From NCBI RefSeq assembly GCF_000429925.1, contig NZ_AUCU01000008.1, forward strand, positions 124,001-188,000: a stretch of 64,000 bases of DNA. Direction: 5' to 3'. The notes beneath the pieces were generated by a model. That model was not told the origin of the DNA. It did no database searches and saw only the letters and a program-made list of their open reading frames with translations. The translations under genes were made by a program, and so were the position numbers. This stretch comes from Desulfatirhabdium butyrativorans DSM 18734 (GTDB lineage Bacteria; Desulfobacterota; Desulfobacteria; Desulfobacterales; Desulfatirhabdiaceae). Positions 37,799 to 46,743 of this stretch are shown piece by piece. Positions within the stretch are counted from its first letter, which is position 1. Every line of letters starts with the position of its first letter.

Positions 37799-39379
37799 AT
37801 GAACGTCCTTCTCATCAATCCCTGGTACCCCATTTCCGAAACCCCTTCTCCCCCGCTCGGGCTGGCTTATCTGGCCGCCAGCCTGGAAAGGGCGGGGCAT
37901 CGGGTGAACATTCTCGATTATGTCGTTTATCCCTACAGCATCGATGGTCTGAAAAGACAGATCGAACGGTTTTCACCGGACTGGGTCGGCGTGACCGCCG
38001 TAACCATGAATGTCAACAAGGCCCTTCAGATCGTTCGCGATGTCAAGTCAATCGATCCGCACATTGGAACCGTCATGGGCGGGCCCCATGTCACGTTTGC
38101 CGCCGAAGATACCCTTGCGGCATGCCCCGGCCTGGATGTCGCGGCGATCGGCGAAGGGGAACATACGCTGATCCGGCTTGTCGAAAGCCCGGCTCAGCGT
38201 GATGCCTGGTTGCAGATTCCCGGCATCGTCTATCGGGATGGGGAACGATTCATCCGAACGGCGCCCAAAGCCGGCTTTCTCGATGTGAAGCTCCTGCCCG
38301 ATCCGGCCCGGCATCTGCTCGCGCTTGCCAGATATCGGATTCTCCACATGCCGATTACCCTCACCACCTCTCGCGGCTGTCCGTTTCAATGCATTTTTTG
38401 TGTCGGCAGAAAAATGGTCGGGGCCAAGGTCCGATACCGTGAGCCGGAAAAAGTGGCGGATGAGATCGAATCCATCGCCGGTCTTGGATTCCATCAGATC
38501 AACATCGCCGACGATCTGTTCACGGCAAACGAGAAGCACTGCCTCGCCATCTGCGATGAAATCCGGCGGCGCGGGTTGCAGGTTCCGTGGACTTCCTTTG
38601 CCCGGGTGGACACGGTCTCCCTGAAAGTGCTCGAAAACATGAAAGCTGCCGGATGTACTGCGGTGAGTTTCGGCATGGAATCGGCCAACGCCGCAATTCT
38701 CAAAACCTGCCGCAAAGGCATTACCCGCCAGCAAATCCTCGATGCGGTGCAGATGTGCGCTCAGGCAGGGATTCAGGCGCACGGCTCATTCATCCTGGGG
38801 CTTCCCGGTGAAAGCGCAGAGACCATTTCCGAAACGCTTGCCTTCGGAGAACGGCTCAAGGAAATGGGGGTATCGTTCGGTTTTCATTTGCTGGCGCCTT
38901 TTCCGGGCACCCGGGTGCGGGAAGAGCGAGAGGCCTATGGCATACGGATTTTGAGCGACAATTGGGACGATTACCATGCGAATCGCGCCATTGTCGAAAC
39001 GAATCAGGCCGATCGGCAGATGATGAATGCCATCGTGGAGCGATGGGAAGATGCTTTCAATGCGGAGCTGGGCAGGATTTCCGAGCGGATGCGCAGCGGG
39101 GCGGCCACGCCGGAAGAAAGCGGCCTGGTGACCAATCTCGAACGGACCGTATGGATCTACGAAATGATGATGGCCGAAGCCCTCGAAACGATCGGCGCCC
39201 TGCCTGCCGAACCGCCTGATGCCGCCATCCGGACCCTTGCCGGAAAGGCGATTTCCTTTGTGAAACATGCAACCCCGGACAGGCTCGTTTTCGCGCTTCA
39301 GACGGCTCGGGACCGAGGCGATCTGGTGGATGTCAGCACGGGAAACGAGATGCACTGGCGATGGCGGGAAAAACTCTAA
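37799..39379 (+). CDS. B12-binding-domain radical SAM protein
   Basis: A 526-residue enzyme. The N-terminal cobalamin-binding Rossmann domain (NVLLINPWYPISETPSPPLG to GGPHVTFAAED) lacks a clear DxHxxG. It is followed by the radical SAM core with CPFQCIFC (CxxxCxxC cluster motif) and SFGMESANAAILKTCRKG. This class often modifies lipids, hopanoids or cofactors, but the substrate is unknown. The ATG at 37799 gives a standard start; the upstream frame is the structured region. The C-terminal 120 residues are not assigned. Confidence 0.85.
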   Translation: MNVLLINPWYPISETPSPPLGLAYLAASLERAGHRVNILDYVVYPYSIDGLKRQIERFSPDWVGVTAVTMNVNKALQIVRDVKSIDPHIGTVMGGPHVTFAAEDTLAACPGLDVAAIGEGEHTLIRLVESPAQRDAWLQIPGIVYRDGERFIRTAPKAGFLDVKLLPDPARHLLALARYRILHMPITLTTSRGCPFQCIFCVGRKMVGAKVRYREPEKVADEIESIAGLGFHQINIADDLFTANEKHCLAICDEIRRRGLQVPWTSFARVDTVSLKVLENMKAAGCTAVSFGMESANAAILKTCRKGITRQQILDAVQMCAQAGIQAHGSFILGLPGESAETISETLAFGERLKEMGVSFGFHLLAPFPGTRVREEREAYGIRILSDNWDDYHANRAIVETNQADRQMMNAIVERWEDAFNAELGRISERMRSGAATPEESGLVTNLERTVWIYEMMMAEALETIGALPAEPPDAAIRTLAGKAISFVKHATPDRLVFALQTARDRGDLVDVSTGNEMHWRWREKL

Positions 39380-39824
39380 AATTATCGTGACAATACTGCA
39401 GTGGGCAGCATGTAGGGGCGACCGGCGGGTCGCCCCTACGAATCCCTGAGAATGCTTTGGTTTGTATTACCGCATCTGCCGGAATGACGGGTTGGATCTT
39501 CATTCACGGGGGTGGCGTCCCTCGCAATGATCATTATATCGTGCCTGAACGAAAAACCTCTATTTGGAGCAGTGCGCCGCCTGCCCTCCGGCTCAGGTTG
39601 TACCCAAAACGGGTTTTCCGTTCAGGCACTAAGCTAACGATAGCTACTGGTGGTTTCAGTAGAACCCTTCCTCAGTTTTATGGTTCTGCCTGTCAAATGA
39701 GATAATCATTGAAGTAGATCATTTACCTTGAGTAGTCGTCCACCCCAAAATCCTCTTGACTCGGCGGAAGATGACGTGCAAGAGAATATGCGTTTCCCGG
39801 ACAACAGTCCATACGAGGTGAAAC
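39380..39824. repeat. Repeat gap: GTAGGGGCGACC palindrome 39412-39439 and 89-nt palindromic element 39541-39629
   Basis: The first repeat is followed by the tail CCCTGAGAATGCTTTGGTTT also seen near 35489 and 58062. The second is the shortest copy with both ends: GTGCCTGAACGAAAAACC to CCGTTCAGGCAC, with the central arms deleted. From 39630 to 39824 is AT-richer DNA that probably holds the acs promoter, but no clear -35/-10 pair was found. Confidence 0.75.
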
Positions 39825-41585
39825 GTGTTTTGGAGGCCGATTCAAAAGCATCCCGAATCGTGGGCGGAATCGCCCAACCTGCTGAATTATGAAGATGCTG
39901 TTGCCCGTTTTTCCTGGGATACCGTTCGCCGTTCCCTGGATGGACTCCCTGGCGGCAGGGGCCTCAACATTGCCCACGAGGCGGTCGATCGTCATGCGGA
40001 AGGCGAACTGCGTGATCATGTGGCCTTGCGGTGGCTTGGCGGCGATGGTTCCGTCCGCGAATTGACTTATGAAGGGCTCAAACGGCAGAGCAGTCGTTTC
40101 GCCAATGTGCTGAAAGGGCTTGGCATCGGGAAGGGCGATACGGTTGCCGTTTTGGCGGGGCGCATTCCCGAGCTCTATATCGCTGCGCTGGGCATTTTCA
40201 AAAACACGAGCATCTTTTGCCCCCTTTTCTCCGCCTTCGGCCCGGAGCCCATATATCAGCGTCTGAGCAGGGGGGATGCGAAAATCCTGGTCACCACCGA
40301 GCTCGCTTTCACGCGGAAGATTCGCCAGCTCCGGGACAGGCTGCCCGGATTGCAGCAGGCGCTCATCGTCGACATACCCGACCATCAGGCAAACGACATG
40401 CTGTCGCTGCCTCGCCTGATGGCGGAATCCAGCGATACATTCCCGATTCCCCCGACCGATCCGGAAGACATGGCAATCCTTCATTTTACGAGCGGCACCA
40501 CCGGAATGCCCAAGGGGGCGATCCATGTGCACAATGCCGTATTGTGTCATTATATGACCGGCAGGTATGTCCTGGATTTTCATCCGCAAGACGTATTCTG
40601 GTGTACGGCGGACCCCGGATGGGTCACCGGCACCTCTTACGGAATCATTGCTCCCCTGCTCCACGGAATCACCAACATCGTCGACGAGGCGGATTTTGAT
40701 GCCATGCGCTGGTGCCGAATTCTGGAGACGCAACGGGTCAGCGTCTGGTACACGGCGCCTACGGCCATCCGGAGGTTCATGCGTTTGGGCATGGAGCCGG
40801 CTCGCCAGTTTGATCTGAGGCATTTGCGTGCCATTCACAGCGTAGGCGAGCCTCTCAATCCCGAGGCCGTGGTCTGGGGGCAGAAGGCCATGGGGTTGCC
40901 GATCCATGACAACTGGTGGCAGACGGAAACGGGCGGCATCATGATTGCCAACTTTCCCGCCATGGATATCCGGCCCGGCTCCATGGGCCGCCCGCTTCCC
41001 GGAATCGAAGCCGCCGTTGTCCAGCGCATGGGCAAGGGTACCGTCCGCGTGATCGATGCGCCGGGCGTTCAGGGCGAGCTTGCGTTGCGACCGGGCTGGC
41101 CTTCCATGTTTCGGGGTTACCTGCACGAGGAACAGCGATACCGGAAATGCTTTGTTGATGGCTGGTATTTGACAGGAGACCTGGCAACATGTGATCAGGA
41201 CGGCTATTTCTGGTTCGTTGGCCGCGCGGATGACATCATCAAGACATCCGGTCACATGGTGGGCCCCTTCGAAGTCGAAAGCACGCTCATGGCGCATCCG
41301 GCAGTTGCCGAGGCAGGCGTTATCGGAAAGCCGGATCCGCTTATCGGAGAAATGGTAAAAGCCTTTGTCACGCTCAAGAGCGGGATCGATCCGAGCGACG
41401 ATCTCCGTTTGGAACTCATGGGTTTTGCACGCAAGAAGCTGGGGTCTGCGGTGGCGCCCAGGGAAATTGATTTCAGATCCAATCTTCCCAAAAACAAGGC
41501 CGGCAAGATCATGCGCCGCTTGCTCAAGGCTCGGGAGCTGGGCTTGCCGGAAGGAGACCTTTCGACGGTGGAGGAAAGCGACTGA
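39825..41585 (+). CDS. acsA: AMP-forming acetyl-CoA synthetase-like ligase
   Basis: A 586-residue acyl-adenylate-forming enzyme of the AcsA (Bacillus-type, about 570 residues) branch. ATP-binding [31 protein letters not shown], the acetyl-CoA synthetase hallmark [20 protein letters not shown] and the C-terminal [15 protein letters not shown] with the catalytic lysine (about Lys561) are present. That lysine is the site acetylated in regulated Acs enzymes. The start is GTG 39825 with CGAGG nearby. The next gene on the strand encodes an acyl-CoA synthetase/GNAT fusion that could modify it. Confidence 0.88.
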
Positions 41586-41639
41586 AACCGGATCGTTTGC
41601 GAAAAGACATGTTTTTTTCGGTCTGCGGCTCACTCAACG

Positions 41640-41822
41640 TGCCCCGGTAGGATGCGCATTTCTCGAAGGTTCGTGGAATATACTGCCTGCCCGCAGGCGA
41701 TGAGCTGCACCGAATAGGGCTTTCCGCTCAGACGCAGGATAGCGTCAACGGAGGGACATCGGTTTGCATGAGCTGAGATGGGGATCATCCGGGATACGGA
41801 TGGGTAACAACGGGGGGATACG
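41640..41822. repeat. Half palindromic element between acsA and the ACD-GNAT gene
   Basis: ACTGCCTGCCCGCAGGCGAT through AATAGGGCTTTCCGCTCAGACG (about 41682-41736) is a right half of the dispersed element. The rest is a short leader. Confidence 0.6.
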
Positions 41823-44519
41823 ATGACGATTCGCAATCTGGATTTCATGTTCAACCCTTCTTCTGTCGCTCTGGTAGGCGCAAGCCCCAAACGGGGCTCC
41901 ATCGGCGCCGTTCTTGCCCATAATCTGGTGCATGCCGGTTTTCAAGGGGAAATTTTTTTCGTGAATCCGAAATACAGCAGCATCGAAGGGCTTCCCGTCT
42001 ATCCCGATCCGGACAGTCTGCCAAAGGCGCCTGATCTTGCCGTGATCGCCACGCCGCCGGATACGGTCCCCCAACTGATTGAAACATTTGGGAAGCGGGG
42101 CACCCGCTCTGCAGTGGTCATCACGGCCGGGTTTCAGGAAGTCGGCAGCGAAGAAGCGAAAAGGCTGTGCGACCAAATGCTCGAATCGGCGAAACCCCAT
42201 CTGCTGCGCATCCTGGGTCCCAACTGCATGGGGATCATGGTGCCCGGTATCGGCCTGAATTCGAGTTTCGGCCATGTGCAGCCCCTCAAGGGGAACATTG
42301 CTTTTGTCGCCCAGTCCGGGGCTGTTCAGACATCCGTATTGGACTGGGCCACATCGAGGGGTATCGGCTTTTCCCATTTCGTATCCGTTGGCAACATGTC
42401 CGATGTCGATTTTGGTGACATGCTCGATTATCTGGCTACCGAATCCAGCGCCAAATCGATTCTGCTCTATATCGAGAACATTACCCATGCCCGAAAATTC
42501 ATGTCTGCCGCCCGGGCTGCCGCACGGATGAAACCGGTTGTCGTGGTCAAGGCCGGGCGCCATGCCGAGGCCGCCCGAGCCGCCGCCTCCCATACCGGTG
42601 CATTGGCAGGAGCCGATGAAGTGTACAGCGCGGCCTTTATGCGCGCAGGCATGCTCCGGGTGATGGACATGCAGGCGCTGTTCAATGCCGTGGAAACCCT
42701 GGCCATGTCTCATCAGTTCACTGGAGATCGCCTGGCCATCCTGACCAACGGCGGTGGCGTGGGGGTCCTGGCCACGGATGTCCTGATCGACAAAAAGGGC
42801 CGCCTGGCCGAGCTGTCTCCGGAAACCATTGGCCGCCTGAACAGCGTGCTCCCGCGGACCTGGTCGCACAACAATCCCGTTGATCTCATCGGTGATGCGC
42901 CTCCGGAGCGTTATGCCGATGCCTTACAGGCGCTTCTGGAAGATGACGGGGTGGATGCCCTGCTGGTGCTGAACTGTCCCACGGCAGTGGCATCCAGCAC
43001 GGATGTCGCCCGGGTGGTGGTCGATACCTTGAAAAAAAGCGGTCTGAAGGCGCTCCATCGGGGCATTTTCACAAGCTGGCTGGGCGCGGATTCCGCCCGG
43101 GAAGCCCGCAGGATATTCGCTGAAAACAGGATCCCGAGCTACGAAACACCGGATGAAGCCGTTCGCGGATTCATGCAGATGGTGCGCTACCGCCGCAGCC
43201 AGGAAATGCTCATGGAAACGCCGCCCAGCATCCCGGAAGTCTTCGAGCCGGAGGTGGATATCGCCCGGGAGATTGTGAACCGGGCCTTGTCTCAGGGCCG
43301 CGGTTGGCTGAGCGAGTTGGAGGCGAAAGCGGTCCTGGCCGCTTACAAAATCCCTACGGTTGAGACATACGAAGCGGCCACACCCGAAGAGGCGGGAAAG
43401 ATCGCCGCCAGGCTGGGCGGATCGCTGGTGTTGAAAATTCTGTCCCCGGATATTCCCCACAAATCGGATGTGGAGGGCGTGGCATTGGATCTGAAATCGG
43501 CGGAAATCGTTACGCAAACCGCCCGGCTCATGGAAGAGCGAATCCGCGCGCGGATGCCAGGAGCGATGCTGTCCGGATTTACGGTTCAACCGATGGTGAA
43601 TCGTCCCAATGCCAGGGAACTGATTGTCGGGGTCAGCGATGACATGCAGTTCGGCCCGGTGATCCTGTTCGGGCATGGCGGTACGGCCGTCGAGATCATT
43701 CAGGACAAGGCCATCGCGTTCCCGCCGCTCAATTTGCACCTTGCCCGGGAGGTCATGGCCCGCACACGTGTATACCGACTGCTGGAAGGATTTCGTGGCA
43801 AGCCGCCTGCGGATATGGACGCTATCGCACGGACGCTGATCAAGGTATCGCAGCTCGTCATCGATATGGCCGATATCGCCGAGCTGGATATCAATCCATT
43901 GCTGGCAGATGAACAGGGCGTGCTGGCTCTGGATGCACGCATCAGGGTGGCTCAATCCCATCTGCCTGCTTCGCAGCGCCTGGCGATTTGCCCGTATCCG
44001 AAGGAACTGGAGGAAACGATTACCCTTCCTGGCGGCCAAACGCTGCTGATTCGCCCCATCCGGCCGGAGGATGAACCGGCGTTTCAGGCGCTTTTCTCCA
44101 GACTTTCCATGGATGAAATCCGCATGCGGTTTCTGCATTTCATGAAATATTTGTCTCATGATATGGCGGCTCGCCTGACCCAGATTGACTACGACCGGGA
44201 GATGGCGCTTGTCCTTTGCGAGCCTGCCGTTCAAACAGAACCGGAGCTGTATGGCGTGGTGCGCTTTGCTGCGGATCCGGACAAGGCACGCGCGGAATTT
44301 GCGATCCTCATTCGCCGCGATATGACCGGCATGGGTTTGGGGCCGATGCTCATGCGCCGGATCATCAAGTACGCCAGAAATCGGGGGATCGGGGAGCTTT
44401 TCGGTGAAGTGCTGGCTGAAAATGCGCCCATGTTGAAAATCTGCGAGGCTTTCGGTTTCAAAAAAAGACGCGACCCGGACGATCCCGGGGTGATGATCGT
44501 TTCATTGCCGCTGGGATGA
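41823..44519 (+). CDS. ADP-forming acyl-CoA synthetase fused to GNAT acetyltransferase
   Basis: An 898-residue three-part protein: CoA-binding/ligase alpha (1-460), ATP-grasp beta (about 480-710) and a C-terminal GNAT domain (about 730-898), the layout of protein acetyltransferase Pat/PatZ. Unlike Pat proteins, which are reported to have lost the ligase active site, this one has Glu218 (LLYIENITHARK) and His257 (AAASHTGALAGADE) at the positions used as catalytic Glu and phospho-His in archaeal ADP-forming acetyl-CoA synthetase. GHGGTAVEIIQDKAIAFPPL is beta-domain. It may both make acyl-CoA (or ATP from it) and acetylate Acs next door. Confidence 0.88.
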   Translation: MTIRNLDFMFNPSSVALVGASPKRGSIGAVLAHNLVHAGFQGEIFFVNPKYSSIEGLPVYPDPDSLPKAPDLAVIATPPDTVPQLIETFGKRGTRSAVVITAGFQEVGSEEAKRLCDQMLESAKPHLLRILGPNCMGIMVPGIGLNSSFGHVQPLKGNIAFVAQSGAVQTSVLDWATSRGIGFSHFVSVGNMSDVDFGDMLDYLATESSAKSILLYIENITHARKFMSAARAAARMKPVVVVKAGRHAEAARAAASHTGALAGADEVYSAAFMRAGMLRVMDMQALFNAVETLAMSHQFTGDRLAILTNGGGVGVLATDVLIDKKGRLAELSPETIGRLNSVLPRTWSHNNPVDLIGDAPPERYADALQALLEDDGVDALLVLNCPTAVASSTDVARVVVDTLKKSGLKALHRGIFTSWLGADSAREARRIFAENRIPSYETPDEAVRGFMQMVRYRRSQEMLMETPPSIPEVFEPEVDIAREIVNRALSQGRGWLSELEAKAVLAAYKIPTVETYEAATPEEAGKIAARLGGSLVLKILSPDIPHKSDVEGVALDLKSAEIVTQTARLMEERIRARMPGAMLSGFTVQPMVNRPNARELIVGVSDDMQFGPVILFGHGGTAVEIIQDKAIAFPPLNLHLAREVMARTRVYRLLEGFRGKPPADMDAIARTLIKVSQLVIDMADIAELDINPLLADEQGVLALDARIRVAQSHLPASQRLAICPYPKELEETITLPGGQTLLIRPIRPEDEPAFQALFSRLSMDEIRMRFLHFMKYLSHDMAARLTQIDYDREMALVLCEPAVQTEPELYGVVRFAADPDKARAEFAILIRRDMTGMGLGPMLMRRIIKYARNRGIGELFGEVLAENAPMLKICEAFGFKKRRDPDDPGVMIVSLPLG

Positions 44520-44538
44520 TCGGGGATGTGAAAAAAGG

Positions 44539-44790
44539 CTACGGGGTGCATTTCGATTTCAAATAGGCAATGCATCCATTGATCGTAGCCAGTTGCGGAT
44601 AGTCTTCTTCCGGAATTTTCACGTTCAGGTGCGCCTGTAGCGCAATGGCGAAATTCAGAAAGTCGACGGAATCGAAATCAAACTGGTTGCGCAGCCGTTC
44701 GGCAGGATCGAGATGTGCGATGTCCGCTTCGGGTGCAATCTTGCCGATAATCTCCAATATGGTTTTCTGAATCTGGTCTTCGCTCAGCAC
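44539..44790 (-). CDS. Acyl carrier protein-like
   Basis: An 83-residue acidic four-helix protein with the phosphopantetheine attachment serine in FDFDSVDFLNFAIALQ. It is not next to fab genes and faces the ligase at 45169. It probably carries acyl groups for a dedicated ligase or transfer step and not for general fatty-acid synthesis. Translation starts at ATG 44790; the ribosome site is not strong. Confidence 0.83.
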   Translation of the reverse strand: MLSEDQIQKTILEIIGKIAPEADIAHLDPAERLRNQFDFDSVDFLNFAIALQAHLNVKIPEEDYPQLATINGCIAYLKSKCTP

Positions 44791-45168
44791 GTGACCGCAC
44801 TTTCGGTTTGGGTGTTGCCGGTAGTCCCTTTGGTTTGATAGCTTCCATCCGGGCGCTCAATACGGATGAACTCGCAACAAGTCACAGAATATCCAAGTCC
44901 GTCATTCCGGCGAAATCCCGCCAGTGGCGGGAGGAATCCAGAACGATAGCCCATGCTGGACCTCGTAGGGGCGACCGGCCGGTCGCCCCTACAGGCTGCC
45001 GACTGCCGCATTTTCAGGATAAATCAGATGGTAATGATGGACCCTGGCTTTCGCCGGGATGACCACTTTTTGCAATGGCATCCATACCGCCTGCCCGCAG
45101 GCGGCGAGCCCCTCTGCCCCAAATGTGGGTTTCCGATCAAACATTATATACCGGGAAAGGAGTGAGTC
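44791..45168. repeat. Composite repeat between the acp gene and the acyl-CoA ligase
   Basis: Holds a GTCATTCCGGCGAAATCC/CCAGTGGCGGGAGG unit from 44901, a perfect-type GTAGGGGCGACCGG palindrome at 44965-44992, GGCTGCCGACTGCCGC, and a right half of the TGCCTGAACG element to about 45145. The ligase leader with AAAGGAG follows. Confidence 0.75.
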
Positions 45169-46743
45169 ATGCAAGTTCCAATGTCGCCAGTCAGAATTCT
45201 TCGTCGAGCTGTCAAGTTGTATCCCCATAAAACGGCAATCGTCGATGGGAACCTCCGGTTTTCCTACCTGGAACTTCAGGACAGGGTCAACCAGGTCACG
45301 CATGCATTGACGAAACTCGGCATATCCGAACGGGGGCGGGTTGCCATCCTGGATTACAATACGCACCGCTATATGGAAATGTACTACGGGATGGCGCAGT
45401 CCAGCCGGGCGCTGCTTCCTCTGAACACACGACTGTCCGCAGAGGAATATGCCTATATCCTGAATGACGCGGAGGCTGAATGCCTGATATTTCACGCCGA
45501 TTACAAGCCCTTGATTGAAAAGATCCTCCAGTCCGTCAAGACGGTCAAAACGTATGTCATCTGCGATGGGCAGGCCGACCGGAACTGGATTTCCCAGGAT
45601 TATGAGGCCATGCTTTCAGAGGCTTCCAATGAACCCGTAAATTATGAGCCGCCTGACGAGAACGACATGCTGAATCTCTACTATACCAGCGGAACGACGG
45701 GTCGGCCGAAGGGCGTTGTGCTCACGCACCGGAATATCTACGCCAATGCATTGACAACGATCATTTCCTTCAAACTGGACGATACGACGGTCTGGTACCA
45801 TATCGCTCCTCTTTTTCATCTTGCAGACGCCTTCTTCGCCTGGTCGGTCACCTTTCAGGGGGGCAGACATGTCATGCAGCGGCAGTTCAACCCGAAAGCT
45901 GTTCTGCAAACCATCCAGAAGGAGCATATTACTTCCTGCATGATGGTGCCCACGATGATCAACTTCATTTTGAACGAACCCGATCTGGACAGCTATGATC
46001 TGGCATCCCTGCAATGGATCATGGTCGGGGGAGCGCCCATGTCGCCGGCAAATGCCCAAAGAATGATGGAACGCCTCGGTTGCCGCTACATATCCGGTTA
46101 TGGGTTGACGGAGACATGCCCGCTGCTGACGGTTGGCAACATCAAGGATACGCTGAGCGGCGAATCCGATGAGGTCAAAATGAAGTATCTGACCCGGACC
46201 GGACTGGAAGTCGTTGGCGTCGATCTGAGAGTGGTTGACGTCAACGGCGTGGACGTTCCCTGGGATGGCAAAACGGTAGGTGAAATCATCGCCAGGGGGG
46301 ACAATGTCATGAAGCAATATTGGAACCTTCCCGGTGAAACGCAAAACGCCATTCGTGACGGGTATTTCCATACCGGTGATCTGGCCAATGTGGATTCCGA
46401 AGGATATATTCTGATTGTTGACCGGGCCAAGGACATCATCATCAGCGGCGGTGAGAACGTGGCCTCTGTCGAGATCGAGAACGTGGTCTATTCACATCCG
46501 GATGTGCTCGAATGCGCAGTGATCGCCTATCCGGATGACAAATGGGGGGAAGTACCCAAATTGCTGGTTGTCCTGAAGCCGGGCAGGCAACTCGATACGC
46601 CACAAATCGTGCAGTACTGCAAAGAGCGGCTCGCTGCGTTTAAGGTCCCCAAACACGTTGAATTTGTATCCGAACTGCCCAAAACGGGTTCCGGTAAAAT
46701 CCTCAAGGGCGAACTCAGAAAGGTCTTTGGGGCCAGGCCATAG
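45169..46743 (+). CDS. AMP-forming acyl-CoA ligase (fatty-acid type)
   Basis: A 524-residue adenylate-forming enzyme. Motifs are LYYTSGTTGRPKGVVLTHRN, SGYGLTETCP, DGYFHTGDLA, DRAKDIIISGGENVASVEIE and the catalytic LPKTGSGKILKGELR. It resembles medium/long-chain fatty-acid or aryl-acid CoA ligases. AAGGAG lies 8 nt before ATG 45169. Its divergent neighbour is an acyl carrier protein, so acyl-ACP or acyl-CoA traffic is plausible. The exact acid is unknown. Confidence 0.9.
   Translation: MQVPMSPVRILRRAVKLYPHKTAIVDGNLRFSYLELQDRVNQVTHALTKLGISERGRVAILDYNTHRYMEMYYGMAQSSRALLPLNTRLSAEEYAYILNDAEAECLIFHADYKPLIEKILQSVKTVKTYVICDGQADRNWISQDYEAMLSEASNEPVNYEPPDENDMLNLYYTSGTTGRPKGVVLTHRNIYANALTTIISFKLDDTTVWYHIAPLFHLADAFFAWSVTFQGGRHVMQRQFNPKAVLQTIQKEHITSCMMVPTMINFILNEPDLDSYDLASLQWIMVGGAPMSPANAQRMMERLGCRYISGYGLTETCPLLTVGNIKDTLSGESDEVKMKYLTRTGLEVVGVDLRVVDVNGVDVPWDGKTVGEIIARGDNVMKQYWNLPGETQNAIRDGYFHTGDLANVDSEGYILIVDRAKDIIISGGENVASVEIENVVYSHPDVLECAVIAYPDDKWGEVPKLLVVLKPGRQLDTPQIVQYCKERLAAFKVPKHVEFVSELPKTGSGKILKGELRKVFGARP

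What the first reader, a model, noticed from the sequence alone, without database searches (positions are those of the whole stretch)
41823..44519. Pat-like fusion that keeps the ADP-forming ligase active site
Seen: Glu218 and His257, the positions known from archaeal ADP-forming acetyl-CoA synthetase, are conserved in a protein with a C-terminal GNAT, next to acsA whose target lysine motif GKIMRR is intact. Known: Pat enzymes are reported to have lost ligase activity. Inference: a bifunctional enzyme that could couple acyl-CoA energy state to Acs acetylation.
Basis: partly seen in the sequence, partly recalled or inferred. Interest (0 to 1): 0.6.

Follow-up and report, generated by a model that had tools for sequence, protein, structure and literature searches.

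The report
Acetyltransferase with apparently intact ATP-making half
This bacterial gene encodes a large protein that should switch off a neighbouring acetate-activating enzyme by acetylating it, and it has also kept every residue needed to make ATP from acyl-CoA; about two thirds of its relatives sampled in two phyla do the same, although reviews call this half of such proteins dead.

Summary
Window 41823-44519 (+) encodes an 898-aa type I protein lysine acetyltransferase: an ADP-forming acyl-CoA synthetase (ACD) half plus a C-terminal GNAT, homologous to E. coli PatZ over its whole length. Unlike PatZ it keeps His257, at the phosphorylated-loop position of known ACDs. It also keeps the second relay histidine (His546) and all other family-conserved ligase residues.

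The trait is not peculiar to this gene. In samples drawn on the GNAT alone, 21/33 Desulfobacterota and 26/39 Pseudomonadota fusions keep both histidines; PatZ is the derived exception, and the review statement that these domains are inactive is over-general.

Cautions: the two nearest orthologues (same family, 80-84% identical) have cleanly lost the ATP-grasp lid carrying His546; the genome's second fusion lost it too; no assayed GNAT-fused ligase was found; substrate unproven.

Best reading: a bifunctional ACD/Pat controlling acetyl-CoA/acetate flux with AcsA; both activities are inferred, not shown.

The parts
41823..44519 (+). ACD-GNAT fusion (type I Pat), 898 aa
   Evidence: ORF, Pfam architecture, PDB homology to PatZ and ACDs, structure match
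41862..42242 (+). CoA-binding domain, residues 14-140
   Evidence: PF13380, 7.5e-22
42288..42701 (+). Succ_CoA_lig domain, residues 156-293, with the phospho-histidine loop
   Evidence: PF13607, 2.4e-55
42474..42476 (+). Glu218 codon; conserved also in ligase-dead relatives, so not diagnostic
42591..42593 (+). His257 codon (ASHTGA), swinging-loop phospho-histidine position
   Evidence: aligned with 8wzu and 4xyl, absent in PatZ; loop block 251-260 has mean pLDDT 60; codon position
42735..43157 (+). Ligase_CoA_2 domain, residues 305-445
   Evidence: PF19045, 2.3e-11
43284..43949 (+). ATP-grasp domain, residues 488-709
   Evidence: PF13549, 1.8e-87
43425..43583 (+). ATP-grasp lid, residues 535-587; cleanly excised in the nearest orthologues L049 and L058
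43458..43460 (+). His546 codon (HKSD), second phosphoryl-relay histidine
   Evidence: aligned with the HKS/HKT histidine of ACDs
44043..44462 (+). GNAT acetyltransferase domain, residues 741-880; Glu825 codon 44295-44297
   Evidence: PF13302, 2.8e-11, and PF00583, 6.2e-9
39825..41585 (+). acsA, AMP-forming acetate-CoA ligase, 586 aa
   Evidence: NF003313, 913.8 bits, cut-off 729
41505..41507 (+). AcsA Lys561 codon in [11 protein letters not shown], presumed acetylation site
44539..44790 (-). acyl-carrier-protein-like gene, 83 aa (FDSVDFLNF), convergent, 19 bases from the fusion stop
   Evidence: PF00550, 28.8 bits over cut-off 20.8; conserved neighbour

Best explanation
A bifunctional type I protein acetyltransferase with a catalytically competent ADP-forming acyl-CoA synthetase half. 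The ligase half should work as in archaeal ACDs: acyl-CoA + Pi gives an enzyme-bound acyl phosphate; His257 on a mobile loop takes the phosphate and carries it to His546 in the ATP-grasp lid, which passes it to ADP (reversible). The GNAT half should use acetyl-CoA to acetylate Lys561 of the neighbouring AcsA and switch it off; one of the genome's two sirtuins could reverse this. The logic would be to prevent a futile cycle: AcsA spends two ATP equivalents to make acetyl-CoA, the fusion regains one by breaking it down, so one protein that drains acetyl-CoA to ATP while shutting AcsA makes the two directions exclusive. Shown: architecture, complete active sites, conservation, gene neighbourhood, no acetate kinase and no stand-alone Pta found in the genome. 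Inferred: both activities, acetate as substrate, AcsA as target, the switching logic.
For: Every position at least 95% conserved in 88 intact fusions matches here. In 39 fusions that lost a relay histidine the conserved ATP-grasp positions decay to 0.75 while GNAT positions stay at 0.945 and CoA-binding positions at 0.97, so the extra conservation in intact members tracks ligase catalysis. The two histidines tend to be lost together: Fisher p 4.7e-13 ignoring phylogeny; on independent pairs 6.3 same way, 0.1 opposite, median sign-test p 0.03, range 0.016-0.22. The lid is under purifying selection between this gene and intact L099 (dN/dS 0.125, 54 codons, dS near saturation). Acyl-pocket Gly357 is kept; PatZ has Asp. 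Structure match to ACDs. acsA is adjacent in the clade. No acetate kinase; the only PTA domain is the tail of a malic-enzyme-like protein; CODH/ACS present; two sirtuins. Relay precedent: PMC4500148, PMC11494057.
Against: No assay exists here, and none of a GNAT-fused ligase was found in the papers searched. Nearest orthologues L049 and L058 lost the lid yet keep acsA and the GNAT. The genome has four other ACD-like proteins without a GNAT, so the ligase may be redundant or use another acyl group. The ADP-forming acetate ligase model is not reached (TIGR02717 489.8 bits against 567). In S. aciditrophicus ADP-forming activity was negligible despite nine annotated genes (PMC4992975). The AcsA site PKNKAGK differs from the PKTRSGK form seen in some other linked AcsA.
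Confidence: 0.5

Rival explanations
1. Ordinary Pat-type acetyltransferase whose ligase half is only an acyl-CoA sensor and scaffold; the intact catalytic residues are a leftover on the way to loss.
For: Sister orthologues (80-84% identical) already lost the lid while keeping acsA and GNAT. Losses are frequent: at least 13 changes at H257 and 17 at H546 on the tree. In Salmonella and E. coli Pat the ligase-like half is reported to bind acetyl-CoA and to regulate the GNAT (PMC8556138).
Against: The full catalytic set is kept in 47 of 72 sampled fusions across two phyla and over long branches, which drift would not allow; lid dN/dS is 0.125.
Confidence: 0.27
2. Bifunctional, but the ligase acts on a non-acetyl acid (for example an aromatic or branched acid), and the GNAT acylates a different AMP-forming ligase, such as the one at 45169-46743.
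For: The acyl-pocket position equivalent to Nmar S385 varies among intact fusions (T, Q, S, L, N). ACDs use many acids: ten P. furiosus NDP-dependent synthetases (PMC3942289, title) and feruloyl-CoA synthetase FCS1 (PMC6388921). A second AMP-forming ligase lies 649 bases downstream.
Against: AcsA is the conserved neighbour across the clade.
Confidence: 0.15
3. The carrier protein is the real partner: AcsA and/or the fusion load or unload acetyl on the adjacent acyl carrier protein, and acetylation of AcsA is secondary.
For: ACP-like gene adjacent in all 5 of 297 Desulfobacterota genomes with this fusion type, and in lid-less G005 and G006. Related ACP genes end AcsA-E1-E2 operons in other genomes, where AcsA is 66-80% identical to this one.
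Against: Gene order only; no enzyme here is known to use ACP. The serine is lost in L105 (DLIDF). The ACP is absent from many other intact fusion loci.
Confidence: 0.08

Closest known systems
E. coli PatZ (YfiQ/Pka) and S. enterica Pat, type I (class I-alpha) lysine acetyltransferases
   Same: Same domain order over the whole length (9it0, E 1.2e-199; Z 44.0 over 873 residues); GNAT glutamate aligned; acts on Acs in enterobacteria.
   Different: PatZ lacks His257 (RLL----NTTAG) and has Asp at the acyl-pocket Gly357; this protein keeps both.
ADP-forming acetyl-CoA synthetase ACD1 (Ca. Korarchaeum 4xyl; P. furiosus ACD) and 4-hydroxybutyryl-CoA synthetase Nmar_0206 (8wzu)
   Same: Subdomains 1-2-5-4-3 as in Nmar_0206, both relay histidines, acyl-pocket glycine.
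   Different: Extra C-terminal GNAT; in ACD1 the two halves are separate subunits; the equivalog cut-offs are not reached.
AcuA-AcsA of Bacillus
   Same: A GNAT encoded next to AcsA that acetylates and inactivates it (PMC11255334 and PMC13121692, abstracts).
   Different: AcuA has no ligase half (own knowledge; listed as a single-domain type IV enzyme in PMC6456759).

Membership tests
[quoted passage not shown]
   898 aa, Pfam order; full-length homology to 9it0
Type I (class I-alpha) lysine acetyltransferase, PatZ-like | GNAT acetyl-CoA loop and conserved glutamate | tested here: met
   Glu825 aligned with the PatZ glutamate; GxGxG kept
Type I (class I-alpha) lysine acetyltransferase, PatZ-like | Ligase domain inactive (stated for type I and II in PMC8556138, with absence of the catalytic histidine as the reason) | tested here: not met
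   His257 and His546 present. 47 of 72 sampled type I fusions also keep both, so this is not a sound defining feature and does not remove the protein from the type
Type I (class I-alpha) lysine acetyltransferase, PatZ-like | Lysine acetylation of Acs | not testable with these tools
   only adjacency of acsA and an intact GKIMRR
ADP-forming acyl-CoA synthetase (ACD) | Phospho-histidine on the swinging loop | tested here: met
   His257 aligned with 8wzu and 4xyl
ADP-forming acyl-CoA synthetase (ACD) | Second histidine in the ATP-grasp lid | tested here: met
   His546 aligned
ADP-forming acyl-CoA synthetase (ACD) | Fold and domain order 1-2-5-4-3 | tested here: met
   8wzu_B Z 48.4, 617 aligned, 2.2 A
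ADP-forming acetate-CoA ligase alpha (NCBIfam TIGR02717 equivalog) | Score above the curated cut-off | tested here: not met
   489.8 bits against 567.15; acetate specificity cannot be claimed
ADP-forming acyl-CoA synthetase (ACD) | ATP formation from acyl-CoA, ADP and Pi | not testable with these tools
   needs an assay

The most novel reading that the evidence does not exclude
The ligase half is a working reporter as well as an enzyme: the phosphorylation state of the His257/His546 relay, set by acyl-CoA, Pi and ADP/ATP, gates the GNAT, so acetylation of AcsA reads phosphorylation potential directly. Lid-less copies are the energy-blind version of the same switch, and in this clade the module has a dedicated carrier protein. 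The L048 locus, lid-less fusion - AcsA - intact fusion, would hold both versions around one target.
Probability: 0.15. Interest if true: 0.75.

Novelty: new variant of a known kind. Interest (0 to 1): 0.45.

Why it matters
Reviews describe the acyl-CoA synthetase half of type I and II bacterial acetyltransferases as catalytically dead. Here about two thirds of sampled type I members in two phyla keep the complete relay, and the enterobacterial model enzyme is one of many losses. If the intact ones work, a large class of proteins both makes ATP from acyl-CoA and controls acyl-CoA synthetases, and the matched intact and lid-less pairs offered by nature make the question directly testable. The linked carrier protein is a further unstudied part.

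Tried and rejected
Glu218 as evidence: rejected, kept in ligase-dead relatives and PatZ. 'Unique to this gene': rejected by the GNAT-first survey. The survey with the whole protein as query (36 of 40 fetched proteins intact by lenient scoring) was set aside because its E-value limit favours lid-bearing proteins. The lenient scoring also miscounted some shifted stretches; the column-strict count is used. An own-genome Pta: rejected, the hit is the C-terminal part of a 770-aa malic-enzyme-like protein. Promoter and terminator scan 39300-45300: no more than chance, so operon structure is unresolved. Rfam on the window: nothing. Distances around His257 could not be measured because the model's coordinates are not given. 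Literature searches for an assayed GNAT-fused ligase or for the AcsA-ACP pairing found none in the open library, which lacks most subscription papers, among them Brasen 2008.

Full report
Observation. The ORF at 41823-44519 (+) is 898 aa long. Its Pfam order is CoA_binding_2, Succ_CoA_lig, Ligase_CoA_2, ATP-grasp_5, Acetyltransf_3, in essence the order of E. coli PatZ. phmmer against solved structures gives PatZ first (9it0, 1.2e-199, residues 2-881), then the ADP-forming synthetases 8wzu, 9y43 and 4xyl. His257 falls on the SHTG histidine of 8wzu and 4xyl; PatZ has a four-residue gap there. His256 of 8wzu is the histidine on the flexible swinging loop, and His535 the one proposed to take the phosphate from ATP first (PMC11494057); in P. 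furiosus the pair is His257-alpha and His71-beta (PMC4500148). The equivalent of the second histidine is His546 here (HKSD).

Glu218 is kept in 92% of 39 fusions that lack one or both relay histidines, and in PatZ, so it carries no information. The informative positions are Ala253, His257, Thr258, Gly259, Gly311, Lys538, Ser541, His546, Lys547, Gly552, Glu599, Gly603, Glu624, Asp704 and Arg706, which are at least 95% conserved in 88 intact fusions and fall to 18-59% in the others; this protein has the consensus residue at all of them. The intact set was defined by His257 and His546, so their own 100% is by construction; that of the others is not. Over the same comparison the conserved GNAT positions stay at 0.945 and CoA-binding positions at 0.97, which says that after ligase loss the protein is kept as an acetyltransferase that binds CoA. 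One acyl-pocket residue, Gly355 of Nmar_0206, is Gly357 here, Gly in 79 of 88 intact fusions and in 9 of the others, and Asp in PatZ.

How common it is. To avoid selecting for intact ligases I searched with a GNAT-only alignment (A1). In 148 Desulfobacterota genomes, 33 fusions could be read: 21 keep both relay histidines (His257 with Gly259, His546 with Lys547), 4 only His257, 1 only His546, 7 neither. In 150 Pseudomonadota genomes, 39 fusions: 26 both, 8 only His546, 5 neither. PatZ is of the 'only His546' class. A tree of 129 proteins with intact stand-alone ACDs as outgroup needs at least 13 changes at His257 and 17 at His546 (FastTree, so deep forks are soft). With the outgroup intact, loss is the natural direction, although such counts cannot themselves tell gain from loss. 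PatZ falls inside a starred set of 30 rows that mixes intact and dead members. The statement that type I and II ligase domains are inactive (PMC8556138) therefore seems to rest on a derived minority.

The nearest relatives. Orthologues at 80-84% identity in two genomes of the same family (L049 in G005; L058 in G006, whose contig has the same length and hits as JAPLJE010000760.1 = L098) have a clean in-frame loss of residues 535-587, the ATP-grasp lid with His546, while His257, the GNAT and the upstream acsA remain. L058 also has a frame break near residue 110-130, perhaps an assembly error. The next ones out, L099 and L101 (Desulfatitalea alkaliphila), are intact. dN/dS between this gene and L099 is about 0.12 in the ligase domains, 0.14 in the ATP-grasp core, 0.125 in the lid and 0.12 in the GNAT (dS is near saturation). 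The window's genome itself has a second fusion, 833 aa, without the lid (G000:C2:18294, L044). In L048 (G017) a lid-less fusion, AcsA and an intact fusion follow one another on one strand. Lid loss without GNAT loss has happened repeatedly, so the two functions are separable, which argues both for a real GNAT role and for caution about the ligase.

Structure. AlphaFold2 with 42 fusion sequences gives mean pLDDT 88 and pTM 0.85; the block 251-260 around His257 has the lowest confidence of the model (60), as expected of a mobile loop. VIA-align: 8wzu_B Z 48.4 (617 residues, 2.2 A), 4xym_C Z 47.8 (457 residues, 1.6 A), PatZ 9it0 Z 44.0 (873 residues, 4.6 A).

Metabolic setting. The genome (4.48 Mb, 97.3% complete) has no acetate kinase match; its only PTA domain is in a 770-aa protein whose N-terminal part reads to me as malic enzyme. 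It has CODH/ACS, formate-tetrahydrofolate ligase in the window, two sirtuins and four further ACD-like proteins without a GNAT, one of them with SHTA instead of SHTG (L005). Acetate and acetyl-CoA are therefore probably interconverted by AcsA, by one or more ACDs, or both. AcsA running forward and an ACD running backward would waste ATP, and a protein that is both an ACD and an AcsA-inactivating acetyltransferase would prevent it. This is inference. AcsA could also run backward, as Acs1 does in Syntrophus aciditrophicus, where ADP-forming activity was 0.02 against 1.3 U/mg for the AMP-forming one despite nine annotated ADP-forming genes (PMC4992975). In that case acetylation of AcsA would stop ATP formation, and the logic would differ.

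The third gene. An 83-aa ORF at 44539-44790 (-), convergent and 19 bases from the fusion's stop, is an acyl-carrier-like protein (PF00550, 28.8 bits, cut-off 20.8). Relatives sit beside the fusion or AcsA in at least 15 loci of the P0001 superclade, in varied orientations (convergent with the fusion in the window, L049, L101, L109, L180; AcsA then ACP on one strand in L105 and L107; fusion, AcsA, ACP on one strand in L108), and in none of the loci of the other Desulfobacterota fusion clade that were examined. In 297 Desulfobacterota genomes the five with a full-length P0001-type fusion of 58% identity or more are exactly the five with an ACP match below 1e-33, each next to it or to its AcsA. 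A second set of ACP relatives ends operons AcsA-E1alpha-E1beta-E2-ACP of pyruvate-dehydrogenase type, with AcsA 66-80% identical to the window's. The pairing AcsA-ACP thus recurs in two contexts that both handle acetyl-CoA. Its function is not known to me, and I found no paper on it.

Verdict. I put the chance that both activities are real and that AcsA is a target at about one half. The case is a widespread, apparently uncharacterised variant of a known protein kind, of moderate interest because it contradicts a general statement in reviews and is easy to test.

Noticed in passing
window 44539-44790 (-); L049, L101, L105, L107, L108, L109, L178, L180 and others: Acyl-carrier-like gene conserved beside AcsA and the ACD/GNAT fusion; not seen in the other fusion clade of Desulfobacterota.
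   Followed up: partly
L307, L308, L313, L314, L315: AcsA 66-80% identical to the window's heads operons with E1 alpha, E1 beta and E2 of a 2-oxoacid dehydrogenase, ending with a related acyl-carrier gene (all parts read in L307, L314 and L315; fewer in L308 and L313).
   Followed up: partly
L048:6389-13650 (G017): Lid-less fusion, AcsA and intact fusion in a row on one strand; a natural pair for testing what the ligase adds.
   Followed up: partly
L040:9528-11429, L042:3963-5888; many 600-700 aa frames: Acetyl-CoA hydrolase/transferase domains fused to a C-terminal GNAT appear to be common in Desulfobacterota: a second kind of CoA-enzyme/GNAT fusion, sometimes close to the ACD/GNAT ones.
   Followed up: no
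L044:7280-9778 (G000:C2:18294-20726): The window genome's own second ACD/GNAT fusion, 833 aa, without the ATP-grasp lid but with a histidine at the His257 position in a changed motif (DHTGA).
   Followed up: partly
L049/L058, L048:6389, L109/L103, L042-L044, L045-L047, L121/L133, L177, L240, L249: Loss of the ATP-grasp lid, in frame and with the GNAT kept, recurs in several separate lineages of the fusion.
   Followed up: partly
window about 41680-41710 and 44880-45130: Palindromic repeats in the gaps either side of the fusion (GCCTGCCCGCAGGC twice; GGGGCGACCGGCCGGTCGCCCC once), REP-like to the eye.
   Followed up: no
L005 (G000:C1:56240): A 734-aa stand-alone ACD-like protein with SHTA in place of SHTG.
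   Followed up: no
L161 (Afipia), L118 (Thiohalocapsa): Fusions that keep the loop histidine but have Ser or Pro at the lid histidine, a half-lost state worth comparing with the characterised Rhodopseudomonas palustris Pat.
   Followed up: no
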